A stretch of 64,000 nt of DNA. Origin: Periplaneta americana. Taxonomy: Eukaryota; Arthropoda; Insecta; Blattodea; Blattidae. The DNA lies in assembly GCF_040183065.1 (NCBI RefSeq), contig NW_027185501.1:1204001-1268000 (forward strand), read 5' to 3'. The notes beneath the pieces were generated by a model. That model saw only the letters and a program-made list of their open reading frames with translations. It did not search any database and had not been told where the DNA came from. The position numbers were made by a program, and so were the translations under genes. Shown piece by piece: positions 1 to 64,000 of this stretch (the stretch's first letter is position 1; the number at the start of each line of letters is the position of its first letter).

Positions 1-18
1 CGATACCCGGCTCCGGAA
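1..18 (+). tRNA. 3' remnant of a tRNA-like copy cut by the window edge
   Basis: The first bases are the end of the T loop, the T stem and the acceptor 3' strand, matching the consensus through CTCCGGAA, followed by CAATTTTTCCCTC. The rest of this copy lies outside the window. Confidence 0.85.
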
Positions 19-231
19 CAATTTTTCCCTCGAAATTATTCATATCAACTTTACAGGGAGTCATACCTGAAATCTTGATTTGCATAATACACGTCACTGT
101 TCGTTAACAGACAACCACAATTTAAGTCACACGGAGTTAGTGTGCACTCGTTGTTTGATGCTTGACGGTTGTCAGCCCAATTTGAGGTCTGTGGATATAG
201 AGGGAAAAATTTGATCGGTGTCGGTTAGAGT

Positions 232-303
232 TCCCGAGTAGCTCAGTGGGAGAGCGTTGGTACGTTAAACCAAAGGTCCCGGGTTCGATACCCGGCTCCG
301 GAA
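232..303 (+). tRNA. tRNA-like gene near the left edge
   Basis: One body change, AGTGGTA to AGTGGGA in the D loop, shared with 6268-6339. All stems and GTT are kept. Confidence 0.8.
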
Positions 304-516
304 CAATTTTTCCCTCGAAATTATTCGAATCAACTTTACAGGGTGTTATACCTGAAATCTTGATTTGCATAATACACGTCACTGTTCGTTAACAGAAAAC
401 CACAATATAAGTCACACGGAGTTGGTGTGCACTCGAAGTTGGATGCTTGACGGTTGTCAGCCCACTTTGATGTCTGTGGATATAGAGGGAAAAATTGGAT
501 CTGTGTCGGTTAGAGT

Positions 517-589
517 TCCGCGAGTAGCTCAGTGGTAGAGCGTTGGTACGTTAAACCAAAGGTACCGGGTTCGATACACGACTCCGGAA
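517..589 (+). tRNA. tRNA-like copy with an inserted acceptor base
   Basis: The acceptor strand reads TCCGCGAG, one base longer than usual, and the 3' side reads CGACTCCGG. The T stem is also damaged (CCGGG/CACGA). It is shared with 7121-7193, 6,604 bp away, so it is an old defect that was copied with its block. Confidence 0.8.
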
Positions 590-1087
590 GAATTTTTCCC
601 TCGAAAGTATTCAAATCAACTTTACAGGGAGTTATACCTGAAATCTTGATTTGCATAATACACGTCACTGTTCGTTAACAGAAAACCACAATTTAAGTCA
701 CACGGAGTTAGTGTCAACTCGAAGTTGGATGCTTGACGGTTGTCAGCCCACTTTGAGATCTGTGGATATAGAGGGAAAAATTGAATCGGTGTCGGTTAGA
801 GTTACCGAGTAGCTCAGTGGAAGAGCGTTGGTACGTTAATACAAAGGTCCCGGGTTCGATACCCGGCTCCGGAACAATTTTTCCCTCGAAATTATTCAAA
901 TCAACTTTACAATGAGTTATACCTGAAATTTTGATTTGCATAATACACGTCACTGTTCGTTATCAGAAAATCACAATTTAAGTCACACGGAGTTAGTGTG
1001 CACTCGAAGTTGGATGCTTGACGGTTGTCAGCCCACTTTGAGGTCTGTGGATATAGAGAGAAAAATTGGATCGGTGTCGGTTAGAGT

Positions 1088-1159
1088 TCCCGAGTAGCTC
1101 AGTGGTAGAGCGTTGGTGATTTAAACCAAAGGTCCCGTGTTCGATATCCGGCTCCGGAA
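1088..1159 (+). tRNA. tRNA-like copy with loop GATTTAA (anticodon TTT)
   Basis: The anticodon stem TTGGT/ACCAA is intact, but the loop gives TTT with A33. The T stem also has a mismatch (CCGTG). Its block partner 3367 reads GCGTTAA, so the change is private to this copy. Confidence 0.75.
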
Positions 1160-1657
1160 CAATTTTTCCCTCGAAATTATTCAAATCAACTTTACAGTTA
1201 GTTATACCTGAAATCTTGATTTGCATAATACACGTCACTGTTCGTTAACTGAAAACCACAATTTAAGTCACACGGAGTTGGTGTGCACTCGAAGTTGAAT
1301 GCTTGTCAGTTGTCAGCCCAATTTGATGTCTGTGGATATAGTGGGAAAAATTGGATCTGTGTCGGTTAGAGTTCCCGAGTAGCTCAGTGGTAGAGCGTTG
1401 GTACGTTAAACCAAAGGTACCGGGTTCGATACCCTGCTCCGGAACAATTTTTCCCTCGAAATTATTCAAATCAACTTTACAGGGAGTAATACCTGAAATC
1501 TTGTTTTTCATAAAAGACGTCACTGTTCGTTAACAGAAAACCACAATTTAAGTCACACGGAGTTAGTGTGCACTCGAAGTTGGATGCTTGACGCTTGTCA
1601 CCCCACTTGGAATTCTGTGGATATAGAGGGAAAAATTGGATCGGTGTCGGTTAGAGT

Positions 1658-1729: not shown

Positions 1730-3081
1730 CAATTTTTCCCTCGAAATTATTCTAATCAACTTTACAGGGAGTTATACCTGAAATCTTGATTTGCATAATA
1801 CACGTTACTGTTCGTTAACAGAAAACCACAATTTAAGTCACACGGAGTTAGTGTGCACTCGAAGTTGGATGCTTGACGGTTGTCAGCCCACTTCAAGGTC
1901 TGTGGATACAGAGGGAAAAATTGGATCGGTGTCGGTTAGAGTCCCCGAGTAGCTCAGTGGTAGAGCGTTGGTACGTTAAACCAAATGTCCCGGGTTCGAT
2001 ACCCGGCTCCGGAACAATTTTTCCCTCGAAAATATTCAAATCAACTTTACAGGGAGTTATACCTGAAATCTTGATTCGCATAATACACGTCACTGTTCGT
2101 TAACAGAAAACTACAATTTAAGTCACACGGAGTTGGTGTGCACTCGAAGTTGGATGCTTGACGGTTGTCAGCCCACTTTGAGGTCTGTGGATATAGAGGA
2201 AAAAATTGGATCGGTGGTGGTTAGAGTTCCCGAGTAGCTCAGTGGTAGAGCGTTAGTACGTTAAACCAAAGTCCCGGGTTCGATACCCGGCTCCGGAACA
2301 ATTTTTCCCTCGAAATTATTCAAATCAACTTTACAGAGAGTAATATCTGAAATCTTGATTTGCATAATACTCGTCATTTTTCGTTAACAGTAAACCACAA
2401 TTTAAGTCACACGGAGTTAGTGTGCACACGAAGTTGAATGCTTGACGGTTGTCAGCCCACATTGAGGTCTGTGGATATAGAGGGAAAAATTGAATTGGTG
2501 TCGGTTAGAGTTCCCGAGAAGCTTAGTGGTAGAGCGTTGGTACGTTAAACCAAAAACCACCCGTTCGATACCCGGCTCCGGAACAATTTTGCCCTCGAAA
2601 TTATTCAAATCAACTTTACAGGGAGTTATACCTGAAATCTTGATTTGCATAATACACGTCACTGTTCGTTAACAGAAAACCAAAATTTAAGTCACCCGGA
2701 GTTATTGTGCACTCGTAGTTGGATGCTTGACGGTTGTCAGCCCACTTTGAGGTCTGTGGATATAGAGGGAAAAATTGAATCGGTGTCTGTTAGAGTTCCC
2801 GAGAAGCTCAGTGGTAGAGCGTTGGTACGTTAAACCAAAGGACCCGCGTTCGATACCCGGCTCCGGAACAATTTTTCCCTCGAAATTATTCAAATCAACT
2901 TTACAGGGAGTTATACCTGAAATCTTGATTTGCATAATACACGTCACTGTTCGATAACAGAAAACCACAATTTAAGTCACACGGAGTTAGTGTGAACTCG
3001 AAGTTGGTTGCTTGACGGTTGTCAGCCCACTTTGAGGTCTGTGGATATAAAGGGAAAAATTGGAACGGTGTCGGTTAGAGT

Positions 3082-4503: not shown

Positions 4504-4629
4504 TCCCGACTAGCTCAGTGGTAGAGCGTTGGTACGTTAAACCAAAGGTCCCGGCATCGATACCCGGCCCCGTGGTAGAGCTTTGCTACGTTAAACCAAA
4601 GGTCCCGGGTTCGATACCCGGCTCCGGAA
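4504..4629 (+). tRNA. Double tRNA-like locus, 126-nt type, first in the window
   Basis: Body positions 1-68 are joined to positions 15-72, an exact 54-bp direct duplication with the junction GGCCCCGTGGTAG. The first half keeps the acceptor 5' strand and A box; its B box is changed. The second half lacks the A-box start and the D-stem 5' strand but has an intact B box and the acceptor 3' strand. The outer acceptor can still close around both halves. The second anticodon stem has TTGCT instead of TTGGT, shared by nearly all doubles. Other full 126-nt members include 8883, 10984, 13085, 14849, 24907, 36049, 42359, 43896, 49293, 53556, 54238, 57535 and 59354. Confidence 0.85.
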
Positions 4630-16329: not shown

Positions 16330-16793
16330 GAGGTCTGTGGAAATAGAGGGAAAAATTGGATCGTTGTCTTTTAGAGTTCCCGAGTAGCTCAGTGGAAGAG
16401 CGTTGGTACGTTAAACCAAAGGTCCCGGGTTCGATACCCGGATCCGGAACAATTTTTCCCTCGAATTTATTGAAATCAACTTTACAGGGAGTTATCCCTG
16501 AAATTTTGATTTGCATAATACACGTCACTGTTCGTTAACAGAAAACCACAATTTAAGTCACACGGAGTTAGTGTGCACTCGACGTTGGATGCTTGACGGT
16601 TGTCAGCCCACTTTGAGTTCTGTGGATATAGATGGAAAAATTGGATCGGTGTCGGTTAGAGTTCCCGAGTAGCTCAGTGGTATTAGGTTGGTACGTTAAA
16701 CCAAAAGTCCCGGGATCGATACCCGGCTCCGGAACTATATTTCCCTCGAAATTATTCAAATCAACTTTACAAGGAGTTATACCTGAAATCTTG

Positions 16794-16801
16794 ATTTGCA
16801 T
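16794..16801 (+). promoter_or_regulatory. Octamer-like ATTTGCAT upstream of the tRNA-like body
   Basis: ATTTGCAT (reverse complement ATGCAAAT) lies about 154 bp before the tRNA-like body and recurs in most units inside TTGATTTGCATAATACACG. It matches the POU octamer used in distal elements of animal snRNA and tRNA-Sec genes. In this array a role is only inferred, since one octamer per consensus unit could be chance. ACACGTCA, a half CRE-like site, follows directly. A variant subfamily (for example 34695-34730 and 42145-42175) reads TTTACATATT and has lost it. Confidence 0.35.
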
Positions 16802-16812
16802 AATACACGTCA

Positions 16813-16826
16813 CTGTTCGTTAACAG
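16813..16826 (+). repeat. Short hairpin CTGTTCGTTAACAG
   Basis: Stem CTGTT/AACAG closes a four-base CGTT loop. It is present in the great majority of units, about 135 bp before the tRNA-like body. The variant CTGTTCGTTTACAG (for example near 29203 and 33580) keeps only the outer four pairs. Other variants such as GTTAAGAG break it without a matching change. No function is assigned. Confidence 0.5.
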
Positions 16827-16843
16827 AAAACCACAATTTAAGT

Positions 16844-16860
16844 CACACGGTGTTAGTGTG
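16844..16860 (+). repeat. Short hairpin CACAC / GTGTG
   Basis: CACAC and GTGTG are separated by seven bases (GGTGTTA here, GGAGTTA in most units). Most units keep both arms. In the CACACCGATTTAGTGTG subfamily the loop changes and the arms stay. Confidence 0.45.
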
Positions 16861-16915
16861 CACTCGAAGTTGAATGCTTGACGGTTGTCAGCCCAATTTG
16901 AGGTCTGTGGATATA

Positions 16916-16928
16916 GAGGGAAAAATTG
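16916..16928 (+). repeat. Left inverted-repeat arm GAGGGAAAAATTG
   Basis: The exact reverse complement lies directly after the tRNA-like body (17020-17032), so the 13-base arms enclose the body together with a 19-base leader. On the minus strand this arm is itself a T5 tract. GATATA lies directly before it, at -38 to -33. Units with double bodies usually read GAGGAAATATTGG here and lose the perfect match. Confidence 0.8.
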
Positions 16929-16954
16929 GATCGGTGTCGGTTAGAGTTCCCGAG

Positions 16955-16965
16955 TAGCTCAGTGG
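16955..16965 (+). promoter_or_regulatory. Internal pol III A box
   Basis: TAGCTCAGTGG fits the eukaryotic A box TRGYNNAGNNG and coincides with the D arm. Subfamilies with AAGCTCAGTGG, TAGGTCAGTGG or AAGATCAGTGG depart from it. Confidence 0.75.
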
Positions 16966-16997
16966 TAGAGCGTTGGTACGTTAAACCAAAGGTCCCG

Positions 16998-17008
16998 GGT
17001 TCGATACC
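16998..17008 (+). promoter_or_regulatory. Internal pol III B box
   Basis: GGTTCGATACC fits GGTTCGANNCC and coincides with the T arm. It is one of the better kept parts of the unit. In the first half of double units it reads GGATCGATACC, losing the first invariant T. Confidence 0.75.
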
Positions 17009-17019
17009 CGGCTCCGGAA

Positions 17020-17032
17020 CAATTTTTCCCTC
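17020..17032 (+). repeat. Right inverted-repeat arm CAATTTTTCCCTC
   Basis: This is the perfect complement of the arm at 16916-16928. Its first C also extends the acceptor helix, because GTT before and AAC after the body can pair, giving a nine-position helix with one C-C mismatch. No target-site duplication is visible outside the arms, so a transposon-end reading is weak. Confidence 0.8.
17023..17027 (+). terminator. Pol III terminator T5
   Basis: TTTTT begins four bases after the discriminator A. Most units have it. The AACAATATTTCCC variant (for example after 27309, 31401, 44593, 50956 and 60051) keeps only three Ts and probably terminates poorly. The CAATTTCTCCC variant also lacks a run of four. 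Confidence 0.75.
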
Positions 17033-18087
17033 GAAATTATTCAAATCAACTTCATAGGGTTTTATACCTGAAATCTTTATTTTGCATAATACACGTCACT
17101 GTTCGTTAACAGAAAACCACAATTTAAGTCTCACGGAGTTAGTGTGCACTCGAAGTTGGATGCTTGACGCTTGTCTGCCCTCTTTGAGGTCTGGGTATAT
17201 AGAGGGAAAAATTGGATCGGTGTCGGTTAGAGTTCCCGAGTAGCTCAGTGGTAGAGCGTTGGTACGTTAAACCAAAGGTCCCGGGTTCGATACCAGGCTC
17301 CGGAACAATTTTTCCCTCGAAATTATTCAAACCAACTTTACAGGGAGTTATACCTGAAATCTTGATTCGCATAATACACGTCACTGTTCGTTAACAGAAA
17401 ACCACAATTTAAGTCACACGGAGTTAGTGTGCACTCGATGTTGGATGCTTGACGGTTGTCAGCCCAATTTGAGTTCTGTGGATATAGAGGGAAAAATTGG
17501 ATCGGTGAGGGTTAGAGTTCCCGAGTAGCTCAGGGGTAGAGCGTTGGTACGTTAAACCAAAGGTCCCGAGTACGATATCCGGCTCCGGAACAATTTTTCC
17601 CTCGAAATTATTCAAGTCAACTTTACAGGGAATTATACCTGAAATTTTGATTTGCATAATACGCGTCACTGTTCGTTAACAGAAAACCACATTTTAAGTC
17701 ACACGGAGTTAGTGTGCACTCGAAGTTGGATGCTTGACGTTTGTCAGCCCAATTTGAGGTCTGTGGAAATCGAGGGAAAAATTGGATCGGTGTCGGTTAG
17801 AGTTCCCGAGTAGCACAGTGGTAGAGAGTTGTTACGTTAAAACAAAGGTCCCGGGTTCGATATCCGGCTCCGGAACAATTTTTCCCTCGAAATTATTCAA
17901 ATCAACTTTACAGGGAATTATACCTGAAATCATGATTTGCATAATACACGTCACTGTTCGTTAACAGAAAACCACAATTTAAGTCACACGGAGTTAGTGT
18001 GCACTCGAAGTTGGATGCTTGACGGTTGTCAGAACACTTTGAGGTCTGTGGATATAGAGGAAATATTGGATCGGTGTCGGTTAGAGT

Positions 18088-27237: not shown

Positions 27238-27309
27238 TCAAGAGAAGCTCAGTGGTAGAGCTTTGGTACGTTAAACCCAAGGTCCCGTGTTCTATACCCG
27301 GCTCCGGAA
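27238..27309 (+). tRNA. tRNA-like copy with degraded acceptor, CAAGAGAAGCTC type
   Basis: The acceptor reads TCAAGAG against CTCCGGA and cannot form properly. Position 8 is A. The B box is also altered (GTGTTCTATACC) and the terminator is reduced to AATATTT. It is nonetheless amplified with its block: 31330, 37243, 39972 and 46050. Confidence 0.78.
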
Positions 27310-45640: not shown

Positions 45641-48600
45641 CAGAAAACCACAATTTAAGTCACACGGAGTTAGTGTGCACTCGAAGTAGTATGCTTGACG
45701 GTTGTCAGCCCAATTTGAGGTCTGTGGATATAGAGGGAAAAATTGGATCGGAGTCGGTTAGATTTCCCGAGTAGCTCAGTGGTAGAGCGTTGGTACGTTA
45801 AACCAAAGGTCCCGGGTTCGATATCCTGCTCCGGAACTATTTTTCCCTCGAAATTATTCAAATCAACTTTACAGGGAGTTATACCTGAAATCTTGATTTG
45901 CATAATACACGTCACAGTTCGTTAACAGAAAACCACAATTTAAGTCACACGGAGTGAGTGTGCACTCGAAGTTCAATGCTTGACGGTTGTCAGCCCACTT
46001 TGAGGTGTGTGGATTTAGAGGGAAAAATTGGATCGATGTCGGTTAGAGTTCAAGAGAAGCTCAGTGGTAGAGCTTTGGTACGTTAAACCAAAGGTCCCGG
46101 GTTCTATACCCGGCTCCGGAACAATATTTCCCTCGAAATTATTCAAATCAACTTTACAGGGAGTTATACCTGAAATCTTGATTTGATTAATACACGTCAC
46201 TGTTCGTTAACAGAAAACCACAATTTAAATCACACGGAGGTAGTGTGCACTCGAAGTTGGATACTTGACGGTTGTCAGCCCACTTTGAGGTCTGTGGATA
46301 TAGAGGAAATATTGGATCGGTGTCGGTTAGAGTTCCCGAGTAGCTCAATGGTAGAGCGTTGGTACGTTAAACCAAAGGTCCCGGGATCGATACCCGGCCC
46401 CGTGGTAGACCGTTGCTACGTTAAACCTAGGTCCCCGGTTCGATACCCGGCTCCGGAACAATTTTTCCCTCGAAATTATACAAATCAACTTTACAGGGAG
46501 TTATACCTGAAATCTTGATTTGCATAATACACGTCACTGTTCGTTAACAGAAAACCACAATTTAAGTCACACGCAGTTAGTGTGCACTCGAAGTTGGATG
46601 CTTGACGGTTGTCAGCCCACTTTGAGGTCTGTGGATATAGAAGGAAAAATTGAATCGGTGTCGGTTAGAGTTCCCGAGTACCTCAGTGGAAGAGCTTTGG
46701 TACGTTAAACCACAGGTCCCGGGTACGATACCCGGCTCCGGAACAATTTTTCCCTCGAAAATATATTGAAGTCAACTTTACAGGGGCTTATACCTGAAAT
46801 GTTGATTTGCATAATACACGTCACTGTTCGTTAACAGAAAGCCACAATTTAAATCACACGGAGTTAGTGTGCACTCGAAGTTGGATGCTTGACGGTTGTC
46901 AGCCCTCTTTGAGGTCTGTGGATATAGAGGGAATAATTGGATCGGTGTCGGTTAGAGTTCCCGAGTAGCTCAGTGGTAGAGCGTTGGTACGTTAAACCAA
47001 AGGTCCCGGGTTCGATACCAGGCTCCGGAACAATTTTTCCCTCGAAATTATTCAAATCAACTTTACAGGGAGTTATACCTGAAATCTTGATTTGCATAAT
47101 ACACGTCACTGTTCGTTAACAGAAAACCAGAATTTAAGTCACACGGAGTTAGTGTGCACTCGAAGTTGGATGCTTGACGGTTGTCAGCCCAATTTGAGGA
47201 CTGTGGATATCGAGGCAAAATTTGGATCGGTGTCGGTTAGAGTTCCCGAGTAGCTCAGTGGTAGAGCGTTGGTACGTTAAACCAAAGGTCCCGGGTTCGA
47301 TATCCGGCTCCGGAACAATTTTTCCCTCGAAATTAATCTAATCATCTTTACAGGGATTTATACCTAAAATCTTGATTTGCATAATACACGTCACTGTTCG
47401 TTAACAGAAAACCACAATTTAAGTCACACGGAGTTAGTGTGCACTCGAAGTTGGATGCTTGACGGTTGTCAGCCCACTTTGAGGTCTGTGGATATAGAGG
47501 GAAAAATTGGATCGGTGTCGGTTAGAGTTCCCTAGTAGCTCAGTGGTAGAGCGTTGGTACGTTAATCCAAAGGTCCTGGGTTCGATACCTGGCTCCGGAA
47601 AAATTTTTCCCTCGAAATTATTCAAATCAATTTTATAGGGAGTTATACCTGAAATCTCCATTTGCATAATACAGGTCACTGTTCGTTAACAGAAAACCAC
47701 AATTTAAATCACACGGAGTTAGTGTGCACTCGAAGTTGGATGCTTGACGGTTGTCAGCCCAATTTGAGGTCTGTGGATATAGAGGGAAAAATTGGATCGG
47801 TGTCGGTTAGAGTTCCCGAGTAGCACAGTGGTAGAGCGTTGGTACGTTAAACCAAAGGTCCCGGGTTCGATACCCGGCTCCAGAACAATTTTTCCCACGA
47901 AATTATTCAAATCATCTTTACAGGAGTTATACCTGAAATCTTGATTTGCATAATACACGTTGCTGTTCGTTTACAGAAAACCACAATTTAAGTCACACGG
48001 AGTTAGTGTGCACTCGATGTTCGATGCTTGAAGGTTGTCAGCCCAATTTGAGGTCTGTAGTTATAGAGGGAAAAATTGGATCGGTGTCGGTTAGAGTTCC
48101 CGAGTCGCTCAGTGGTAGAGCGTTGGTACGTTCAACCTAAAGTCCAGCGTTCGATATCCGGCTCCGGAACAATTTTTCCCTCGAAATTTTTCAAATCCAC
48201 TTTACAGGGAGTTATTTCTGAAATCTTGATTTGCATAATACACGTCACTGTTCGCTAACAGAATACCACAATTTAAGTCACACGGAGTTAGTGTGCACTC
48301 GAAGTTGGATGCTTGACGGTTGTCAGCCCACTTTGAGGTCTGTGAATATAGAGGGAAAAATTGGATCGGTGTTGTTTAGAGTTCCCGAGTAGGTCAGTGG
48401 AAGAGCGTTGGACGTTAAACCAAAGGTCCCGGGTTCGATACCCGGCTCCGGAACAATTTTTCCCTCGAAATTATTCAAATCAACTTTACAGGGAGTTATA
48501 CCTGAAATCTTGATTTGCATAATACAAGTCACTGGTCGTTAACAGAAAACTACAATTTAAGTCACACGGAGTTAGTGTGCACTCGAAGTTGTATGCTTGA

Positions 48601-50080
48601 CGGTTGTCAGCCCACTTTGAGTTATGTGGATATAGAGGGAAAAATTGCATCGGTGTCGGTTAGAGTTCTCGAGTAGCTCAGTGGTTTAGCGTTGGAATGT
48701 TAAACCAAAGTTCCGGGTTCGATACCCGGCTTCGGAACAATTTTTCCCTCGAAATTATTCAAATCAACTTCCCAGGGAATTATATCCGGAAATCTTGATT
48801 TGCATAATACACGTCACTGTTCGTTAACAGAAAACCACAATTTAAGTCACACGGAGTTAGTGTGCACTCGAAGTTGTATGCTTGACGGTTGTCAGCCCTC
48901 TTTGAGGTCTGTGGATATAGAGGGAAAAATTGGATCGGTGTCGGTTAGAGTTCTCGAGTAGCTCAGTGGTAGAGCATTGGAATGTTAAACCAAAGTCCCG
49001 GGTTCGATACCCGGCTTCGGAACAATTTTTCCCTCGAAATTATTCAAATCATCTTTACAGGGAGTTATACCTGAAATCTTGATTTACATATTACACGTCA
49101 CTGTTCGTTAATAGAAAACCACAATTTAATCACACGGAGTTAGTGTGCACTCGAAGTTGGATGCTTGACTGTTGTCAGCCCAATTTGAGGTCTGTGGATA
49201 TAGAGGGAAAAATTGGATCGCCTTGACGGTTGTCAGCCCAATTTGAATTCTGTGGATATGGAGGGAAAAATTGCAACGGTATCGGTTAGAGTTCCCGAGT
49301 AGCTCAGTGGTAGAGCGTTGATACGTGAAACCAAAGGTCCCGGGATCGATACCCGGCCCCGTGGTAGAGCGTTGCTACGTTAAACCAAATGTCCCGTGTT
49401 CGATACCCGGCTCCGGAACAATTTTTCCCTCGAAATTATTCAAATCAACTTTACAGTTAGTTATACCTGAAATCTTGATTTGCATAATACACGTCACTGT
49501 TCGTTAACAGAAAACCACAATTTAAGTCACACCGATTTAGTGTGCACTCGAAGTTGGATGCTTGACGGTAGTCAGCCCACTTTGAGGTCTGTGGATATAG
49601 AGAGAAAAATTGGATCGGTGTCGGTTAGAGTTCCCGAGTAGCTCAGTGGTAGAGCGTTGGTACGTTAAACCAAAGGTCCTGGGTTATATAACCGGCTCCG
49701 GAACAATTTTTCCCTCGAAATTATTCAAATCTACTTTACAGGGAGTTATACCTGGAATTTTGATTTGCATAATACTCGTCACTGTACGTTAACAGAAAAC
49801 CACAATTTAAATCACACGGAGTTATTGTGCACTCGACGTTGGTTGCTTGACGGTTGTCAGCCCACTTTGAGGTCTGTGGATATAGAGGGAAAAATTGGAT
49901 CGGTGTCGGTTAGAGTTCCCGAGTAACTCAGTGGTAGAGCGTTGGTACGTTAAACCAAAGGTCCCGGGTTCGATACCAGGCTCCGGAACAATTTTTCCCT
50001 CGAAATTATTCAAATCAACTTTACAGGCAGTTATACGTGAAATCTTGATTTGCATAATACACTTCACTGTTCGTTAAGAG
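45641..50080 (+). repeat. Higher-order repeat C, copy 2
   Basis: Fifteen units. tRNA-like base 1 lies at 45765, 46050, 46334 (double), 46672, 46959, 47244, 47529, 47814, 48098, 48383, 48667, 48952, 49293 (double with linker duplication), 49632 and 49917. Units 46959, 47244 and 47529 have no partner in copy 1 but match 38489, 38774 and 39059, so copy 1 probably lost them by one unequal exchange. The offset becomes one base larger at 48667, where a linker A run is one base longer. Confidence 0.93.
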
Positions 50081-50459
50081 AAAATCACAATTTAAGTCAC
50101 ACGGAGTTAGGGTGCACTCGAAGTTGGATGCTTGACGGTTGTCAGCCCAATTTGAGGTCTGTGGATATAGAGGGAAAAATTGGATCGGCTTGACGGTTGT
50201 CAGCCCAATTTGAATTCTGTGGATATGGAGGGAAAAATTGCAACGGTATCGGTTAGAGTTCCCGAGTAGCTCAGTGGTAGAGCGTTGGTACGTTAAACCA
50301 AAGGTCCCGGGATCGATACCCGGCCCCGTGGTAGAGCGTTGCTACGTTAAACCTAGGTCCCGGGTTCTATACCCGGCTCCGGAACAATATTTCCCTCGAA
50401 ATTATTCAAATCAACTTTACAGGGAGTTATACGTGAAATCTTGATTTGCATAATACACG
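50081..50459 (+). repeat. Hybrid double unit between repeats C and D
   Basis: One double locus at 50260-50384 with the 58-bp linker duplication. Its first half resembles 53556, while its second half (CCTAGGTCCCGGGTTCTATACC, then AACAATATTTCCC) resembles 45143. It looks like a recombination product of two double-unit types. Confidence 0.8.
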
Positions 50460-53400
50460 TCACTGTTCGTTAACAGAAAACCACAATTTAAGTCACACGG
50501 AGTTAGTGTGCACTCGAAGTTGGATGCTTGACGGTTGTCAGCCCACTTTGAGGTCTGTGGATATAGAAGGAAAAATTGAATCGGTGTCGGTTAGAGTTCC
50601 CGAGTAGCTCAGTGGAAGAGCTTTGGTACGTTAAACCAAAGGTCCCGGGTACGATACCCGGCACCGGAAGAATTTTTCCCTCGAAAATATATTTAAGTCA
50701 ACTTTACAGGGACTTATACCTGAAATGTTGATTTGCATAATACACGTCACTGTTCGTTAACAGAAAACCACAATTTAAGTCACACGGATTTAGTGTACAC
50801 TCGAAGTTCGATGCTTGACGGTTGTCAGCCCACTTTGATGTCTGTGGATATAGAGGGAAAAATTGGATCGATGTCGGTTAGAGTTCAGGAGAAGATCAGT
50901 GGTAGAGATTTGGTACGTTAAACCAAAGGTCCCGGGTTCGATAACCGCCTCCGGAACAATATTTCCCTCGAAATTATTCAAATCAACTTTACAGGGATTT
51001 ATACCTGAAATCTTGATTTGCATAATACACGTCACTGTTCGTTAACAGGAAACCACAATTTAAATCAGACGGAGGTAGTGTGCACTCGAAGTTGGATGCT
51101 TGACTGTTGTCAGCCCACTTTGAAGTCTGTGGATATAGAGGCAATATTGGATCGGTGTCGGTTAGAGTTCCCGAGTAGCTCAGTGGTAGAACGTTGGTAC
51201 GTTAAACCAAAGGTCTCGGGATCGATCCCCGGCCCCGTGGTAGAGCATTGCTACGTTAAACTAAGGTCCCGGGTTCGATACCCGCCTCCGGAACAATTTC
51301 TCCCTCGAAATTATTCAAATCAACTTTACAGGGAGTTATACCTGAAATCTTGATTTGCATAATACACGTCACTGTTCGTTAACAGAAAACCACAATTTAA
51401 GTCACACGGAGTTAGTGTGCACTAGAAGTTGGATGCTTGACGGTTGTCAGCCCACTTTGAGGTCTGTGGATATAGAAGGAAAAATTGAATCGGTGTCGGT
51501 TAGAGTTCCCGAGTAGCTCAGTGGAAGAGCGTTGGTACGTTAAACCAAAGGTCCCGGGTTCGATACCAGGCTCCGGAACAATTTTTCCCTCGAAATTATT
51601 CAAATCAACTTTACAGGGAGTTATACCTGAAATCTTGATTTGCATAACACGCGTCACTGTTCGTTAACAGAAAACCAGAATTTAAGTCACACGGAGTTAG
51701 TGTGCACTCGAAGTTGGATGCTTGACGGTTGTCAGCCCAATTTGAGGTCTGTGGATATCGAGGGAAAATTTGGATCGGTGTCGGATAGAGTTCCCGAGTA
51801 GCTCAGTGGTAGAGCGTTGGTACGTTAAACCAAAGGTCCCGGGTTCGATATCCGGCTCCGGAACAATTTTTCCCTCGAAATTATTCTAATCAACTTTACA
51901 GGGATTTATACCTGAAATCTTGATTTGCATAATGCACGTCACTATTCGTTATCAGAAAACCACAATTTAAGTCACACGGAGTTAGTGTGCACTCGAAGTT
52001 GGATGCTTGACGGTTGTCAGCCCACTTTGAGGTCTGTGGATATAGAGGGAAAAATTGGATCGGTGTCGGTTAGAGTTCCCGAGTAGCTCAGTGGTAGAGC
52101 ATTTGTACGTTAAACCAAAGGTCCCGGGTTCCATACCTGGCCCCGGAACAATTTTTCCCTCGAAATTATTCAAATCAACTTTATAGGGAGTTATACCTGA
52201 ATCTCGATTTGCATAATACACGTCACTGTTCGTTAACAGAAAACCACAATTCAAATCACACGGAGTTAGTGTGCACTCGAAGATGGATGCTTGACGGTTG
52301 TCAGCCCAATTTGAGGTCTGTGGATATAGAGGGAAAAATTGGATCGGTGTCGGTTAGAGTTCCCGAGTAGCTCAGTGGTAGAGCGTTGGTACGTTAAACC
52401 AAAGGTCCCGGGTTCGATACCCGGCTCTGGAACAATTTTTCCCACGAAATTATTCAAATCATCTTTACAGGAGTTATACCTGAAATCTTGATTTGCATAA
52501 TAAACGTCGCTATTCGTTTACAGAAAACCACAATTTAAGTCACACGGAGTTAGTGTGCACTCGGAGTTCGATGCTTGACAGTTTTCAGCCCAATTTGAGG
52601 TCTGTGGATACAGAGGGAAAAATTGGATCGGTGTCGGTTAGAGTTCCCGAGTAGCTCAGTGGTAGAGCGTTGGTACGTTAAACCAAAGGTCCCGGGTTCG
52701 ATATCCTGCTCCGGAACAATTTTTCCCTCGAAATTTTTCAAATCAACTTTACAGGGAGTTATTCCTGAAATCGTGATTTGCATAATACAGGTCACTATTC
52801 GCTAACAGAATACCACAATTTAAGTCACACGGAATTAGTGTGCACTCGAAGTTGGTTGCTTGACGGTTGTCAGCCCACTTTGAGGTCTGTGAATATAGAG
52901 GGAAAAATTGGATCGGTGTTGTTTAGAGTTCCCGAGTAGGTCAGTGGTAGAGCGTTGGACGTTAAACAAAAGGTCCCGGGTTCGATACCCAGCTCCGGAA
53001 CAATTTTTCCCTCGAAATTATTCAAATCAACTTTACAGGGAGTTATACCTGAAATCTTGATTTGCATAATACACGTCACTGTTCGTTAACAGAAAACCAC
53101 AATTTAAGTCACACGGAGTTAGTGTGCACACGAAGTTGTATGCTTGACGGTTGTCAGCCCGCTTTGAGGTCTGTGGATATAGAGGGAAAAATTGGATCGG
53201 TGTCGGTTAGAGTTCTCGAGTAGCTCAGTGGTAGAGCATTGGAATGTTAAACCAAAGTCCCGGGTTCGATACCCGGCTTCGGAACAATTTTTCCCTCGAA
53301 ATTATTCAAATCAACTTTACAGGGAGTTATACCTGAAATCTTGATTTACATATTACACGTCACTGTTCGTTAACAGAAAACCACAATTTAAGTCACACGG

Positions 53401-54438
53401 AGTTAGTGTGCACTCGAAGTTGGATGCTTGACTGTTGTCAGCCCAATTTGAGGTCTGTGGATATAGAGGGAAAAATTGGATCGGCTTGACGGTTGTCAGC
53501 ACAATTTGAATTCTGTGGATATGGAGGGAAAAATTGCAACGGTATCTATTAGAGTTCCCGAGTAGCTCAGAGGTAGAGCGTTGGTACGTTAAACCAAAGG
53601 TCCCGGGATCGATACCCGGCCCCGTGGTAGAGCGTTGCCACGTTAAACCAAATGTCCCGTGTTCGATACCCGGCTCCGGAACAATTTTTCCCTCGAAATT
53701 ATTCAAATCAACTTTACAGTTAGTTATACCTGAAATCTTCATTTGCATAATACACGTCACTGTTCGTTAACAGAAAACCACAATTTAAGTCACACCGATT
53801 TAGTGTGCTCTCGAAGTTGGATGCTTGACGGTTGTCAGCCCACTTTGAGGTCTGTGGATATAGAGGGAAAAATTGGATCGGTGTCGGTTAGAGTTCCCTA
53901 GTAGCTCAGTGGTAGAGCGTTGGTACGTTAATCCAAAGGTCCCGGGTTCGATACCTTGCTCCGGAACAATTTTTCCCTCGAAATTATTCAAATCAATTTT
54001 ATAGGGAGTTTTACCTGAAATCTCGATTTGCATAATACACGTCACCGTTCGTTAACAGAAAACCACAATTTAAATCACACGGAGTTAGTGTGCACTCGAA
54101 GTTGGATGCTTGACGGTTGTCAGCCCAATTTGAGGTCTGTGGATATAGAGGGAAAAATTGGATCGGCTTGACGGTTGTCAGCCCAATTTGAGGTCTGTGG
54201 ATATAGAGGGAAAAATTGCAACGGTATCGGTTAGAGTTCCCGAGTAGGTCAGTGGTAGAGCGTTGATACGTTAAACCAAAGGTCCCGGGATCGATACCCG
54301 GCCCCGTGGTAGAGCGTTGCTACGTTAAACCAAAAGTCCCGTGTTCGATACCCGGCTCCGGAACAATTTTTCCCTCGAAATTATTCAAATCAACTTTACA
54401 GTTAGTTATACCTGAAATCTTGATTTGCATAATACACG
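50460..54438 (+). repeat. Higher-order repeat D, copy 1 (3,979 bp, 13 units)
   Basis: Thirteen units. tRNA-like base 1 lies at 50598, 50885, 51169 (double), 51507, 51792, 52077, 52361, 52645, 52930, 53214, 53556 (double with linker duplication), 53895 and 54238 (double with linker duplication). All but the last recur in order at exactly +3,979 bp. Private markers include GAGGCAATATTGG before 51169, CATAACACGCGTC after 51507, and CATACCTGGCCCCGG in 52077. Confidence 0.95.
53214..53284 (+). tRNA. tRNA-like copy of the U33 subfamily in repeat D
   Basis: Loop ATGTTAA with variable AGTC and an intact T arm. The preceding spacer has GCACACGAAGTTGTATGC. The 57193 partner differs by TGTAGCTCAG in the A box. 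T5 is present in both. Confidence 0.8.
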
Positions 54439-57400
54439 TCACTGTTTGTTAACAGAAAACCACAATTTAAGTCACACGCAGTTAGTGTGCACTCGAAGTT
54501 GGATGCTTGACGGTTGTCAGCCCACTTTGAGGTCTGTGGATATAGAAGGAAAAATTGAATCGGTGTCGGTTAGAGTTCCCGAGTAGCTCAGTGGAAGAGC
54601 TTTGGTACGTTAAACCAAAGGACCTGGGTACGATACCCGGCTCCGGAAGAATTTTTCCCACGAAAATATATTTAAGTCAACTTTACAGGGACTTATACCT
54701 GAAATGTTGATTTGCATAATACACGTCACTGTTCGTTAACAGAAAACCACAATTTAAGTCACACGGAGTTAGTGTACACTCGAAGTTCGATGCTTGACGG
54801 TTGTCAGCCCACTTTGATGTCTGTGGATATAGAGGGAAAAATTGGATCGATGTCGGTTAGAGTTCAGGAGAAGATCAGTGGTAGAGATTTGGTACGTTAA
54901 ACCAAAGGTCCCGGGTTCGATAACCGCCTCCGGAACAATATTTCCCTCGAAATTATTCAAATCAACTTTACAGGGATTTATACCTGAAATCTTGATTTGC
55001 ATAATACACGTCACTGTTCGTTAACAGGAAACCACAATTTAAATCACACGGAGGTAGTGTGCACTCGAAGTTGGATGCTTGACGGTTGTCAGCCCACTTT
55101 GAAGTCTGTGGATATAGAGGCAATATTGGATCGGTGTCGGTTAGAGTTCCCGAGTAGCTCAGTGGTAGAACGTTGGTACGTTAAACCAAAGGTCTCGGGA
55201 TCGATCCCCGGCCCCGTGGTAGAGCATTGCTACGTTAAACTAAGGTCCCGGGTTCGATACCCGCCTCCGGAACAATTTCTCCCTCGAAATTATTCAAATC
55301 AACTTTACAGGGATTTATACCTGAAATCTTGATTTGCATAATACACGTCACTGTTCGTTAACAGAAAACCACAATTTAAGTCACACGGAGTTAGTGTGCA
55401 CTAGAAGTTGGATGCTTGACGGTTGTCAGCCCACTTTGAGGTCTGTGGATATAGAAGGAAAAATTGAATCGGTGTCGGTTAGAGTTCCCGAGTAGCTCAG
55501 TGGAAGAGCGTTGGTACGTTAAACCAAAGGTCCCGGGTTCGATACCAGGCTCCGGAACAATTTTTCCCTCGAAATTATTCAAATCAACTTTACAGGGAGT
55601 TATACCTGAAATCTTGATTTGCATAACACGCGTCACTGTTCGTTAACAGAAAACCAGAATTTAAGTCACACGGAGTTAGTGTGCACTCGAAGTTGGATGC
55701 TTGACGGTTGTCAGCCCAATTTGAGGTCTGTGGATATCGAGGGAAAATTTGGATCGGTGTCGGATAGAGTTCCCGAGTAGCTCAGTGGTAGAGCGTTGGT
55801 ACGTTAAACCAAAGGTCCCGGGTTCGATATCCGGCTCCGGAACAATTTTTCCCTCGAAATTATTCTAATCAACTTTACAGGGATTTATATCTGAAATCTT
55901 GATTTGCATAATGCACGTCACTATTCGTTATCAGAAAACCACAATTTAAGTCACACGGAGTTAGTGTGCACTCGAAGTTGGATGCTTGACGGTTGTCAGC
56001 CCACTTTGAGGTCTGTGGATATAGAGGGAAAAATTGGATCGGTGTCGGTTAGAGTTCCCGAGTAGCTCAGTGGTAGAGCGTTTGTACGTTAAACCAAAGG
56101 TCCCGGGTTCCATACCTGGCCCCGGAACAATTTTTCCCTCGAAATTATTCAAATCAACTTTATAGGGAGTTATACCTGAATCTCGATTTGCATAATACAC
56201 GTCACTGTTCGTTAACAGAAAACCACAATTCAAATCACACGGAGTTAGTGTGCACTCGAAGATGGATGCTTGACGGTTGTCAGCCCAATTTGAGGTCTGT
56301 GGATATAGAGGGAAAAATTGGATCGGTGTCGGTTAGAGTTCCCGAGTAGCTCAGTGGTAGAGCGTTGGTACGTTAAACCAAAGGTCCCGGGTTCGATACC
56401 CGGCTCTGGAACAATTTTTCCCACGAAATTATTCAAATCATCTTTACAGGAGTTATACCTGAAATCTTGATTTGCATAATAAACGTCGCTATTCGTTTAC
56501 AGAAAACCACAATTTAAGTCACACGGAGTTAGTGTGCACTCGGAGTTCGATGCTTGACGGTTTTCAGCCCAATTTGAGGTCTGTGGATACAGAGGGAAAA
56601 ATTGGATCGGTGTCGGTTAGAGTCACCGAGTAGCTCAGTGGTAGAGCGTTGGTACGTTAAACCAAAGGTCCCGGGTTCGATATCCGGCTCCGGAACAATT
56701 TTACCCTCGAAATTTTTCAAATCCTCTTTACAGGGAGTTATTCCTGAAATCGTGATTTGCATAATACAGGTCACTATTCGCTAACAGAATACCACAATTT
56801 AAGTCACACGGAGTTAGTGTGCACTCGAAGTTGGTTGCTTGACGGTTGTCAGCCCACTTTGAGGTCTGTGAATATAGAGGGAAAAATTGGATCGGTGTTG
56901 TTTAGAGTTCCCGAGTAGGTCAGTGGTAGAGCGTTGGACGTTACACAAAAGGTCCCGGGTTCGATACCCAGCTCCGGAACAATTTTTCCCTGGAAATTAT
57001 TCAAATCAACTTTACAGGGAGTTATACCTGAAATCTTGATTTGCATAATACACGTCACTGTTCGTTAACAGAAAACCACAATTTAAGTCACACGGAGTTA
57101 GTGTGCACACGAAGTTGTATGCTTGACGGTTGTCAGCCCGCTTTGAGGTCTGTGGATATAGAGGGAAAAATTGGATCGGTGTCGGTTAGAGTTCTCGTGT
57201 AGCTCAGTGGTAGAGCATTGGAATGTTAAACCAAAGTCCCGGGTTCGATACCCGGCTTCGGAACAATTTTTCCCTCGAAATTATTCAAATCAACTTTACA
57301 GGGAGTTATACCTGAAATCTTGATTTACATATTACACGTCACTGTTCGTTAACAGAAAACCACAATTTAAGTCACACGGAGTTAGTGTGCACTCGAAGTT

Positions 57401-58120
57401 GGATGCTTGACTGTTGTCAGCCCAATTTGAGGTCTGTGGATATAGAGGGAAAAATTGGATCGGCTTGACGGTTGTCAGCACAATTTGAATTCTGTGGATA
57501 TGGAGGGAAAAATTGCAACGGTATCTATTAGAGTTCCCGAGTAGCTCAGAGGTAGAGCGTTGGTACGTTAAACCAAAGGTCCCGGGATCGATACCCGGCC
57601 CCGTGATAGAGCGTTGCCACGTTAAACCAAATGTCCCGTGTTCGATACCCGGCTCCGGAACAATTTTTCCCTCGAAATTATTCAAATCAACTTTACAGTT
57701 AGTTATACCTGAAATCTTGATTTGCATAATACACGTCACTGTTCGTTAACAGAAAACCACAATTTAAGTCACACCGATTTAGTGTGCACTCGAAGTTGGA
57801 TGCTTGACGGTTGTCAGCCCACTTTGAGGTCTGTGGATATAGAGGGAAAAATTGGATCGGTGTCGGTTAGAGTTCCCTAGTAGCTCAGTGGTAGAGCGTT
57901 GGTACGTTAATCCAAAGGTCCCGGGTTCGATACCTTGCTCCGGAACAATTTTTCCCTCGAAATTATTCAAATCAATTTTATAGGGAGTTTTACCTGAAAT
58001 CTCGATTTGCATAATACACGTCACCGTTCGTTAACAGAAAACCACAATTTAAATCACACGGAGTTAGTGTGCACTCGAAGTTGGATGCTTGACGGTTGTC
58101 AGCCCAATTTGAGGTCTGTG
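54439..58120 (+). repeat. Higher-order repeat D, copy 2
   Basis: Twelve units. tRNA-like base 1 lies at 54577, 54864, 55148 (double), 55486, 55771, 56056, 56340, 56624, 56909, 57193, 57535 (double with linker duplication) and 57874, each 3,979 bp after its partner. Differences are single scattered bases. After 57874 the order changes, and the next unit (58159) belongs to the type seen at 40881. Confidence 0.95.
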
Positions 58121-59230
58121 GATATAGAGGGAAAAATAGGATCGGTGTCGGTTAGAGTTCCCGAGTAGCTCAGTGGTAGAGCGTTGGTACGTTAAACCAA
58201 AGGTCCCGGGTTCGATACCTGGCTCCGGAACAATTTTTCCCACGAAATTATTCAAATCATCTTTACAGGAGTTATACCTGAAATCTTGATTTGCATAATA
58301 CACGTTGCTGTTCGTTTACTGAAAACCACAATTTAAGTCACACGGAGTTAGTGTGCACTCGATGTTCGATGCTTGACGGTTGTCAGCCCAATTTGAGGTC
58401 TGTGGTTATAGAGGGAAAAATTGGATCGGTGTCGGTTAGAGTTCCCGAGTAGCTCAGTGGTAGAGCGTTGGTACGTTAAACCAAAAGTCCCGGGTTCGAT
58501 ATCCGGCTCCGGAACAATTTTTCCCTCGAAATTTTTCAAATCCTCTTTACAGGGAGTTATTCCTGAAATCTAGATTTGCATAATACACGTCACTGTTCGC
58601 TAACAGAATACCACAATTTAAGTCACACGGAGTTAGTGTGCACTCGAAGTTGGATGCTTGACGGTTGTCAGCCCACTTTGTGGTCTGTGAATATAGAGGG
58701 AAAAATTGGATCGATGTTGTTTAGAGTTCCCGAGTAGGTCAGTGGAAGAGCGTTGGACGTTAAACCAAAAGTCCCGGGTTCGATACCCGGCTCCGGAACA
58801 ATTTTTCCCTCGAAATTATTCAAATCAACTTTACAGGGAGTTATACCTGAAATCTTGATTTGCATAATACAAGTCACTGGTCGTTAACAGAAAACTACAA
58901 TTTAAGTCACACGGAGTTAGTGTGCACTCGAAGTTGGATGCTTGACGGTTGTCAGCCCACTTTGAGTTATGTGGATATAGAGGGAAAATTTGGATCGGTG
59001 TCGGTTAGAGTTCTCGAGTAGCTCAGTGGTATAGCGTTGGAATGTTAAACCAAAGTTCCGGGTTCGATACCCGGCTTCGGAACAATTTTTCCCTCGAAAT
59101 TATTCAAATCAACTTTACAGGGAGTTATATCTGAAATCTTGATTTGCATATTACACGTCACTGTTCGTTAACAGAAAACCACAATTTAAGTCACACGGAG
59201 ATAGTGTGCACTCGAAGTTGGATGCTTGAC
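58121..59230 (+). repeat. Four units resembling part of repeat C
   Basis: tRNA-like base 1 lies at 58159, 58443, 58728 and 59012. They follow the same order as 40881, 41165, 41450 and 41733 (offset about 17,278 bp) and as 47814 to 48667, sharing the CACGTTGCTGTTCGTTTAC spacer and the missing-base and U33 types. Confidence 0.88.
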
Positions 59231-62200: not shown

Positions 62201-62411
62201 AATTTCTCCCTCGAAATTATTCAAATCAACTTTACAGGGAGTTATACCTGAAATCTTGATTTGCATAACACGCGTCACTGTTCGTTAACAGAAAACCAGA
62301 ATTTAAGTCACACGGAGTTAGTGTGCACTCGAAGTTGGATGCTTGACGGTTGTCAGCCCAATTTGAGGTCTGTGGATATCGGGGAAAATTTGGATCGGTG
62401 TCGGATAGAGT

Positions 62412-62483
62412 TCCCGAGTAGCTCAGTGGTAGAGCGTTGGTACATTAAACCAAAGGTCCCGGGTTCGATATCCGGCTCCGGAA
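62412..62483 (+). tRNA. tRNA-like copy with anticodon ATT
   Basis: The loop is ACATTAA in an otherwise near-consensus body (GATATCC in the T arm). Its relatives 51792, 55771 and 61223 keep GTT, so the change is recent. Confidence 0.78.
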
Positions 62484-63264
62484 CAATTTTTCCCTCGAAA
62501 TTATTCTAATCAACTTTACAGGGATTTATACCTGAAATCTTGATTTGCATAATACACGTCACTATTCGTTATCAGAAAACCACAATTTAAGTCACACGGA
62601 GTTAGTGTGCACTCGAAGTTGGATGCTTGACGGTTGTCAGCCCACTTTGAGGTCTGTGGATATAGAGGGAAAAATTGGATCGGTGTCGGTTAGAGTTCCC
62701 GAGTAGCTCAGTGGTAGAGCGTTGGTACGTTAAACCAAAGGTCCCGGGTTCCATACCTGGCCCCGGAACAATTTTTCCCTCGAAATTATTCAAATCAACT
62801 TTATAGGGAATTATACCTGAATCTCGATTTGCATAATACACGTCACTGTTCGTTAACAGAAAACCACAATTCAAATTACACGGAGTTAGTGTGCACTCGA
62901 ATCTGGATGCTTTACGTTTGTCAGCCCAATTTGAGGTCTGTGGATATAGAGGGAAAAATTGGATCGGTGTCGTTTAGAGTTCCCGAGTAGCTCAGTGGTA
63001 GAGCGTTGGTACGTTAAATCAAAGGTCCCGGGTTCGATACCCGGCTCTGGAACAATTTTTCCCACGAAATTATTCAAATCATCTTTACAGGAGTTATACC
63101 TGAAATCTTGATTTGCATAATAAACGTCACTCTTCGTTAACAGAAAACCACAATTTAAGTCATACGGAGTTAGAGTGCACTCGAAGTTGGATGCTTGACG
63201 GTTGTCAGCCCACTTCGAGGTCTGTGGATACAGAGGGAACAATTGGATCGTTGTAGGTTAGAGT

Positions 63265-63336
63265 TCCCGAGTAGCTCAGTGGTAGAGCGTTGGTACTTTA
63301 AACCAAAGGTCCCGGGTTCGATACCCGGCTCCGGAA
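63265..63336 (+). tRNA. tRNA-like copy with anticodon TTT
   Basis: The loop is ACTTTAA (TTT would be Lys), from a single G to T at position 34. The rest of the body is consensus and T5 follows. C33 is unchanged. Confidence 0.78.
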
Positions 63337-63832
63337 CAATTTTTCCCTCGAAATTATTCAAATCACCTCTACAGGGAGTTATACCTGAAATCTTATTTCC
63401 ATAATACACGTCACTGTTCGTTAACAGAAAACTACAATTTAAGTCACACCGAGTTAGTGTGCACTCGAAGTTGGATGCTTGACGGTTGTCAGCCCACTTT
63501 GAGGTCTGTGGATATAGAGGGAAAAATTGGATCGGTGTCGGTTAGAGTTCCCGAGTAGCTCAGTAGTAGAGCGTTGGTACGTTAAACCAAAGGTCCCGGG
63601 TTCGATACACGGCTCCGGAACAATTTTCCCTCGAAATTATTCAAATCAACTTTACAGGGATTTCCCTGAAATCTTGATTTGCATAATACACGTCAGTGTT
63701 CGTTAACAGAAAAAACCACAATTTAAGTCACACGGAGTTAGTGTGCACTCGAAGTTGGATGCTTGACGGTTGTCAGCCCACTTTGAGGTCTGTGGATATA
63801 GAGGGAAAAATTGGATCGGTGTCGGTTAGAGT

Positions 63833-63904
63833 TCCCGAGTAGCTCAGTGGTAGAGCGTTGGTACGTTAAACCAAAGGTCCCGGGTTCGATACCCGGCTCC
63901 GGAT
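63833..63904 (+). tRNA. tRNA-like gene, consensus except discriminator T
   Basis: The body is intact through the acceptor. Only position 73 changes, A to T. Both inverted-repeat arms are perfect (63801-63813 and 63905-63917). Anticodon GTT with C33. Confidence 0.85.
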
Positions 63905-64000
63905 CAATTTTTCCCTCGTAATTATTCAAATCAACTTTGCAGGGTGTTATATCTGAAATCTTGATTTGCATAATACACGTCACTTTTCGTTAACAGAAAA

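What the first reader, a model, noticed from the sequence alone, without database searches (positions are those of the whole stretch)
1..64000. A 64-kb satellite in which every unit is a tRNA-like gene
Seen: 215 head-to-tail tRNA-like bodies in 64 kb, about one per 298 bp, with nothing else and no array edge. Tandem tRNA arrays are known in Entamoeba, and large tRNA clusters in zebrafish and Xenopus, but a satellite of a single tRNA-like gene at this density is unusual. It could be a pol III-loaded chromatin domain, a source of tRNA-like RNA or fragments, or inert satellite.
Basis: partly seen in the sequence, partly recalled or inferred. Interest (0 to 1): 0.85.

Follow-up and report, generated by a model that had tools for sequence, protein, structure and literature searches.

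The report
Decayed tRNA-derived satellite DNA array
This 64-kb stretch is a satellite DNA whose 285-base unit carries an old tRNA-like gene copy, and the copies drift and spread like ordinary satellite repeats, with no sign that the tRNA part itself is being kept for a job.

Summary
The window is one uninterrupted head-to-tail array of 215 complete units (mostly 284/285 bp), each with one tRNA-like body on the + strand; neither edge is in the window. Rfam's tRNA model matches in 194 of 215 units and ARAGORN; ARAGORN finds 0 or 1 in 20 surrogates.

"tRNA gene" is too strong. The consensus has box A, box B and a T5 terminator, but a C·C acceptor mismatch and C instead of U33. Copies differ from consensus as much in the tRNA body (4.3%) as in the spacer (3.6%), and base pairs break at least as often as under random mutation. 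92 of 215 units keep both boxes plus T4; independence predicts about 87. Runs of 8-13 units recur at 99.0-99.7% identity: higher-order repeats.

Best reading: a neutrally drifting satellite born from a tRNA locus and spread by unequal exchange; the tRNA is a passenger, though many copies could still be transcribed by pol III. tRNA satellites are known (91.95-kb maize array). Unusual: a strongly palindromic unit and no transition bias (kappa about 1.1). Host unidentified; copy number, transcription and chromosomal position untested.

The parts
1..64000 (+). Satellite array: 215 complete head-to-tail units, basic period 285/284 bp, no edge in the window
   Evidence: TRF period 285; 216 anchors; alignment of 215 units
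1943..2227 (+). One representative unit (tRNA-like body followed by spacer)
1943..2014 (+). tRNA-like body of that unit, 72 nt, Rfam RF00005 55.3 bits; anticodon loop 1973-1979 reads ACGTTAA (C at position 33)
1950..1960 (+). Box A-like TAGCTCAGTGG
   Evidence: a box A pattern (recalled) is met in 169 of 215 units
1993..2003 (+). Box B-like GGTTCGATACC
   Evidence: a strict box B pattern (recalled) is met in 130 of 215 units
2018..2022 (+). T5 run, pol III terminator-like, 3 nt after the tRNA-like body
   Evidence: T4 or longer in 183 of 215 units
1911..1923 (+). Left arm of 13-bp perfect inverted repeat flanking the tRNA body (GAGGGAAAAATTG)
2015..2027 (+). Right arm of the same inverted repeat (CAATTTTTCCCTC)
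2031..2084 (.). Second dyad, in the spacer: imperfect arms of about 23 bp, 2031-2053 and 2062-2084
   Evidence: self-comparison and fold of the consensus; placed on this unit from the sequence
4518..4626 (+). Example of the 54-bp internal duplication of the tRNA body (38 of 215 units carry a 53/54-bp duplication by their length)
24777..24887 (+). Example of the 58-bp duplication upstream of the tRNA body (11 of 215 units carry it by their length)
50441..58285 (+). Higher-order repeat: 13 units 50441-54419 repeated at 54420-58285, distance 3979 bp, 99.1% identical
16506..22700 (+). Higher-order repeat: 10 units 16506-19460 repeated at 19746-22700, distance 3240 bp, 99.7% identical
25658..32703 (+). 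Higher-order repeat: 10 units 25658-28611 repeated at 29750-32703, distance 4092 bp, 99.3% identical
40724..50044 (+). Higher-order repeat: 8 units 40724-43110 repeated at 47657-50044, distance 6933 bp, 99.0% identical

Best explanation
This is a satellite DNA that began as the tandem duplication of a tRNA or tRNA-pseudogene locus with its own flanks and pol III terminator. Shown: the array is continuous, its units are about 93% identical on average whatever their distance, and runs of 8-13 units recur at 99.0-99.7% identity, so recent spread was by copying blocks. Shown: the tRNA body, its pairs and its promoter boxes drift like the spacer. Inferred: unequal exchange or a similar block-copying process drives the spread, and the tRNA-like body is a passenger with no translational role. 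Inferred: some copies may still be transcribed by pol III into short tRNA-like RNAs as a by-product.
For: Divergence from consensus is 4.3% in the tRNA body and 3.6% in the spacer; distinct variants per column 1.85 vs 1.69, p = 0.16; recent differences per site 0.84 vs 0.90. Paired cells are within 3 of the independence expectation at 20 of 21 pairs (the exception, pair 29-39, is told under evidence against), and broken pairs per unit are 2.49 vs 2.38 +/- 0.06 for mutations placed at random. tRNA fold energy is slightly weaker than in randomly mutated copies, p = 0.003. Box A, box B and terminator 11-mers sit at the 60th, 24th and 42nd percentile of all 11-mers of the unit. The C.C acceptor mismatch is in 200 of 215 units and the loop ACGTTAA (C33) in 170 of 215. 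Neighbouring units are no more alike than distant ones (0.928 at lag 1; mean pairwise difference 20.2 of 285), while runs at lags of 11, 13, 14 and 23 units reach 99.0-99.7%.
Against: The consensus tRNA is still good: the best 8 copies score 60.3-61.2 bits, so the founding sequence was close to a real tRNA. 92 of 215 units keep box A, strict box B and a T4+ run. Pair 29-39 of the anticodon stem is kept in 205 of 215 units against 201.3 expected, with 2 compensated units, and one more double change lies in the T stem. 14 of 215 units read ATGTTAA, with U33. Selection on total RNA output or on the array as a whole would not show in these per-copy tests. The host genome is not held, so no outside copy, read depth or expression could be compared.
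Confidence: 0.75

Rival explanations
1. A pol III/TFIIIC-loaded domain or a source of tRNA-like RNA: the array is kept because hundreds of box A/B copies recruit pol III factors or yield small RNAs, with selection acting on the array rather than on single copies.
For: Box A in 169, strict box B in 130 and a T4+ run in 183 of 215 units; all three in 92. The T5 run lies 3 nt after the body.
Against: The joint count of 92 is close to the 87 expected if the three decay independently (my arithmetic); box and terminator retention is not above that of other 11-mers in general.
Confidence: 0.12
2. A dyad-rich structural satellite, for example centromeric: the hairpin-forming palindromes, of which the tRNA is only one, are what matters.
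For: The consensus unit folds as single-stranded DNA far better than shuffles (-54.6 vs -30.5, z -6.6; 168-nt spacer part alone z -3.9). A 117-nt extended palindrome contains the tRNA body (z -6.1). A perfect inverted repeat of 13 bp is reached in 1 of 2000 simulated units. The spacer dyad is slightly more stable in real units than in randomly mutated ones (-12.25 vs -11.81, p 0.09). Dyads have been reported as enriched at centromeres of several species (abstract of PMC9070824).
Against: That difference is not significant, and the tRNA-containing dyad shows none (p 0.26); no covariation in the 13-bp arms. No positional information. The PMC9070824 abstract itself finds dyad enrichment only on the Y centromere in D. 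melanogaster.
Confidence: 0.15
3. A SINE-derived satellite: the unit descends from a tRNA-headed retroposon, as satellites in squamate reptiles do.
For: SINE-derived satellites exist (PMC10702118, abstract and Discussion). The unit length and tRNA head would fit.
Against: A T5 run 3 nt after the tRNA body would be expected to stop pol III before any SINE body. I recognised no SINE core or tail, but no SINE library was available.
Confidence: 0.12
4. A functional tRNA gene array as in Entamoeba or P. infestans.
For: Head-to-tail, one strand, one isotype called in 111 of 116 ARAGORN calls.
Against: C33, C.C mismatch, no visible purifying selection, 116 of 215 units called by ARAGORN. In the named cases copies are reported as nearly identical (P. 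infestans single-chromosome monomeric arrays, PMC9584435 passages) or mostly uniform (E. histolytica, PMC2652664 abstract).
Confidence: 0.02
5. An assembly artefact.
For: Long near-identical blocks could reflect an assembly loop, and 16 of 215 units have an identical partner in the consensus columns; read depth is not available.
Against: Units differ by about 7% pairwise, and the four longest block pairs still differ by 0.9-2.9 substitutions per unit on average, so this is not one read repeated.
Confidence: 0.03

Closest known systems
Maize tRNA satellite (tRNASAT_ZM), 91.95-kb array on chr4L (PMC10335936, passages read)
   Same: A long satellite array named after tRNA, of similar total length
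   Different: Its unit sequence and length were not available here, so identity could not be tested; CpG content and lack of C-to-T decay argue against this window being heavily methylated plant satellite DNA (inference)
Phytophthora infestans tRNA arrays, e.g. 271 tRNA-Cys copies with a 513-nt unit (PMC9584435, passages read)
   Same: One tRNA per unit in that example, head to tail, hundreds of copies
   Different: Monomeric single-chromosome arrays are described as nearly identical (dimeric and trimeric ones as more diverse), and most copies as predicted tRNA genes; here units differ by about 7% and the tRNA is decayed
Hydractinia and Nematostella tRNA/ncRNA tandem arrays (PMC11067881, passages read)
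   Same: Evenly spaced arrays of tens to hundreds of similar copies with repeated spacers
   Different: [quoted passage not shown] no higher-order blocks are mentioned in the passages read
Entamoeba tRNA gene arrays (PMC2652664, abstract and section list read)
   Same: Tandem tRNA-containing units
   Different: Up to 5 tRNA genes per unit, short tandem repeats between genes in E. histolytica and E. dispar; most copies uniform within an isolate
SINE-derived satellites of squamates (PMC10702118, abstract and Discussion read)
   Same: Satellite built from a pol III-type element
   Different: Built from parts of SINEs; no tRNA locus with its own terminator is described in what I read
Human 1q23.3 tRNA VNTR (PMC4041453, abstract read)
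   Same: Tandem repeat containing tRNA genes
   Different: 7.3-kb units, 9-43 copies, CTCF-bound

Membership tests
Satellite DNA | Long head-to-tail array of a short unit | tested here: met
   215 units over 64 kb, no interruption
Satellite DNA | Copies related by block amplification / higher-order repeats | tested here: met
   Of 13 runs found (4 or more units, at most 8 differences each), the four of 8-13 units are 99.0-99.7% identical and the nine of 4-6 units 97.5-98.9%
Satellite DNA | High genomic copy number | not testable with these tools
   No host genome held
tRNA-derived repeat | Unit matches the tRNA covariance model | tested here: met
   RF00005 at gathering score in 194 of 215 units, up to 61.2 bits
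Functional tRNA gene | U33 and a fully paired acceptor stem | tested here: not met
   Loop ACGTTAA (C33) in 170 of 215 and U33 in ATGTTAA in 14; C.C at acceptor pair 4 in 200 of 215; the U33 rule is recalled
Functional tRNA gene | Purifying selection on body and pairs | tested here: not met
Pol III transcription unit | Box A, box B, T-run terminator | tested here: met
   In the consensus and jointly in 92 of 215 units
Pol III transcription unit | Transcribed in vivo | not testable with these tools
   no RNA data
SINE | tRNA head read through into a body and tail | tested here: inconclusive
   T5 run 3 nt after the tRNA body in the consensus speaks against it; no RNA data, no SINE library, and tail and target-site duplications cannot be assessed inside an array
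Hammerhead-type retrozyme satellite | Self-cleaving ribozyme motif in the unit | tested here: not met
   No ribozyme family among the 8 matches up to E = 5 in 1658-2600, nor among matches at gathering score in the window

The most novel reading that the evidence does not exclude
The array is a chromosome-structural element (centromere, boundary or fragile site) in which hundreds of decaying pol III promoters embedded in a strongly palindromic unit act collectively, so that selection works on array-wide factor loading or hairpin formation and leaves no trace on single copies.
Probability: 0.1. Interest if true: 0.7.

Novelty: new member of a known kind. Interest (0 to 1): 0.3.

Why it matters
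It is a clean natural case of a tRNA locus turned into a higher-order satellite, with more than 200 copies at one place in which to watch a pol III promoter and a cloverleaf decay without visible constraint. It also warns that tRNA counts from genome scans can be inflated by satellites: here 116 to 194 'tRNAs' in 64 kb with no sign of function. The lack of transition bias and the palindromic unit may help to identify the host lineage and the mutational process.

Tried and rejected
Host identification failed: no genome is held for the window. Exact-pattern scans of viral contigs with one pattern spanning flank and body start and one spacer pattern gave nothing. Of two tRNA-body patterns the long degenerate one gave nothing; the 24-mer hit three contigs, where it lies in ordinary tRNA-His (two) or tRNA-Phe (one) genes among many other tRNA genes. 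The best of these is 53 of 60 identical, but the search was seeded by an exact match, so I draw no origin from it. Genome contigs: none for the tRNA pattern and one 19-mer in a bacterial MAG with no wider similarity. Plasmids: none. The phage and E. coli collections were not searched.

Rejected: a hidden protein. The longest of the 42 stop-free frames of 90 aa or more is 148 aa, and the same lengths recur with the repeat, such as 114 aa (frames running off the window ends were not listed). The opposite-strand reading resembles spurious tRNA-derived ORFs known to me from memory.

Rejected: conserved spacer motifs. GACGGTTGTCA, ATTTGCATAAT and GTGTGCACTCG are among the most retained 11-mers, but the clustering of invariant columns is not beyond permutation.

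Rejected: reading MIR1031, the next best family, as real; it scores 24.7 against a gathering score of 100, and I take it to see the flanking hairpin.

Caveats: searches took the tRNA body as 73 nt starting one base before the Rfam start; searches took the 72 nt of the Rfam match. In one search the first dyad was cut one base short at its left end, and the second was taken as 53 nt. The random control places mutations evenly, without the observed base spectrum; the one uses that spectrum. The 88 pairs are not independent. The substitution models ignore recombination among units. In one search, 'recent' means nearest-neighbour pairs with at most 6 differences, and runs were required to have at most 8 differences per unit, so their identity is high partly by selection; 327 of 23005 unit pairs meet that limit. 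Searches use the 285 consensus columns only, so the duplicated 54/58-bp inserts were left out of those counts. Paper searches for tRNA satellites were (looked for the tRNA letters); the library holds only open-licence PMC papers.
Full report
What is there. The window is one continuous head-to-tail array. A spacer anchor occurs 216 times from 75 to 63961, bounding 215 complete units. Unit lengths are 282-287 bp in 175 units, 336-339 in 29, 343 in 2 and 396-397 in 9. The longer units carry a 53/54-bp duplication inside the tRNA body, a 58-bp duplication just upstream of it, or both. Every tRNA call is on the + strand. No foreign sequence and no array edge was seen.

Is it tRNA-like beyond chance? 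Yes. ARAGORN bodies, against 0 in 19 and 1 in one of 20 Markov surrogates. Rfam's tRNA model passes its gathering score once in each of 194 of 215 units, with a best score of 61.2 bits; no surrogate control was run for Rfam. The consensus body, TCCCGAG...CTCCGGAA, has box A and box B motifs and is followed after 3 nt by T5. The exact motif definitions are recalled.

Is it a working tRNA? The consensus has a C.C mismatch at acceptor pair 4 (200 of 215 units) and the anticodon loop ACGTTAA, which puts C where tRNAs have U33 (170 of 215; a further 14 read ATGTTAA, with U33). The Asn label given by ARAGORN to 111 of 116 calls is therefore nominal.

Is the tRNA body under selection? I ran several tests over 215 units and none shows it. 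Divergence from consensus is 4.3% in the body and 3.6% in the spacer. Distinct variants per column are 1.85 and 1.69, p = 0.16, and the split by GC and AT sites shows no significant difference either. Differences between nearest-neighbour units (88 pairs with at most 6 differences) are 0.84 and 0.90 per site. Over 21 pairs there are 3 double changes in all. Paired cells match the independence expectation closely; the largest excess is at pair 29-39, 205 against 201.3, with 2 of the double changes, and the largest shortfall at pair 30-38, 172 against 174.9. Broken pairs per unit are 2.49 against 2.38 +/- 0.06 for randomly placed mutations. Fold energy of the body is slightly worse than in randomly mutated copies, p = 0.003. 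Box A, box B and the terminator are retained at the 60th, 24th and 42nd percentile of all 11-mers. Box A is kept in 169, strict box B in 130 and a T4+ run in 183 of 215 units; all three in 92, against about 87 expected by independence (my arithmetic).

How did it spread? Neighbouring units are no more alike than units far apart (0.928 at lag 1; mean pairwise difference 20.2 of 285). Yet at lags of 11, 13, 14 and 23 units there are runs of 8 to 13 units at 99.0-99.7% identity, over distances of 3240, 3979, 4092 and 6933 bp; nine shorter runs of 4-6 units are 97.5-98.9% identical. That is higher-order repeat structure. The mean nearest-neighbour distance is 8.7-10.2 substitutions in the first three blocks of 20 units and 2.6-5.8 in the rest, so recent block copying was concentrated from about 16.5 kb on, where the first long block starts. 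The 54-bp duplication is scattered through the whole array (38 of 215 units). Its first copy carries its own variants in the TRF consensus units, which suggests a single origin followed by spread (inference).

Unusual features. First, the unit is strongly palindromic. The tRNA body sits between perfect 13-bp inverted repeats, a length reached in 1 of 2000 simulated units. The 117 nt from arm to arm fold, as RNA, into one long imperfect hairpin that competes with the cloverleaf (-54.2 vs -32.3 for shuffles, z -6.1). The spacer holds a second dyad, and the whole unit has z -6.6 as DNA. There is no significant sign that these dyads are maintained; the spacer dyad leans that way at p = 0.09. Second, substitutions show no clear transition bias: 93 transitions to 158 transversions in recent differences, not different from the 1:2 of unbiased change (p = 0.23) and well below 1:1 (p = 2e-5); kappa is 1.09 under K2P and 1.12 under HKY. 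CpG sites are neither depleted (15 observed, 14.0 expected) nor more variable than other GC sites. I infer that the array does not behave like heavily CpG-methylated DNA, which speaks against a vertebrate or flowering-plant satellite, without naming the host. A lack of transition bias has been reported for grasshopper pseudogenes; I saw this only as cited in a passage of PMC5083911.

Most likely working. A tRNA or tRNA-pseudogene locus with its flanks and terminator was duplicated in tandem and grew by exchange between misaligned copies, later in blocks of several kb. The tRNA body rides along. Transcription of some copies by pol III is possible and untested. I prefer a tRNA locus to a SINE as founder because of the T-run directly behind the body, but I had no SINE library.

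Comparison with what is known. Tandem arrays containing tRNAs are known from Entamoeba (PMC2652664, abstract), Hydractinia and Nematostella (PMC11067881, passages), P. infestans (PMC9584435, passages) and human 1q23.3 (PMC4041453, abstract); [quoted passage not shown] A satellite named for tRNA forms a 91.95-kb array in maize (PMC10335936, passages). The present array fits the last kind best, as far as the name and size in those passages allow. I found no description of this particular unit: searches of the open PMC library for its tRNA letters and for tRNA-satellite terms showed me none, but the library is partial, only the listings shown were looked through, and repeat databases were not available. 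Of the listings returned I opened only the papers named in this report and PMC12652284 (abstract and outline).

Noticed in passing
whole window: No clear transition bias among satellite copies: 93 transitions to 158 transversions in recent differences, kappa about 1.1.
   Followed up: partly
whole window: CpG is not depleted in the unit consensus (15 vs 14.0 expected) and CpG sites are not more variable than other GC sites, as if the array were not CpG-methylated.
   Followed up: partly
1911-2027 and the equivalent place in other units: A 117-bp extended imperfect palindrome with perfect 13-bp ends encloses the tRNA body and competes with the cloverleaf.
   Followed up: yes
2031-2084 and the equivalent place in other units: A second dyad with arms of about 23 bp lies in the spacer; in the consensus its right arm contains an octamer-like ATTTGCAT, which occurs exactly 189 times in the window.
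   Followed up: partly
first 60 units (75 to about 17.6 kb): Units in the left part have more distant nearest partners (mean 8.7-10.2 substitutions) than units further right (2.6-5.8): recent block copying is uneven along the array.
   Followed up: partly
opposite strand of the tRNA body: Reads ...EPGIEPGTFGLTYQRSTTELL..., like spurious tRNA-derived ORFs common in databases (recalled).
   Followed up: no
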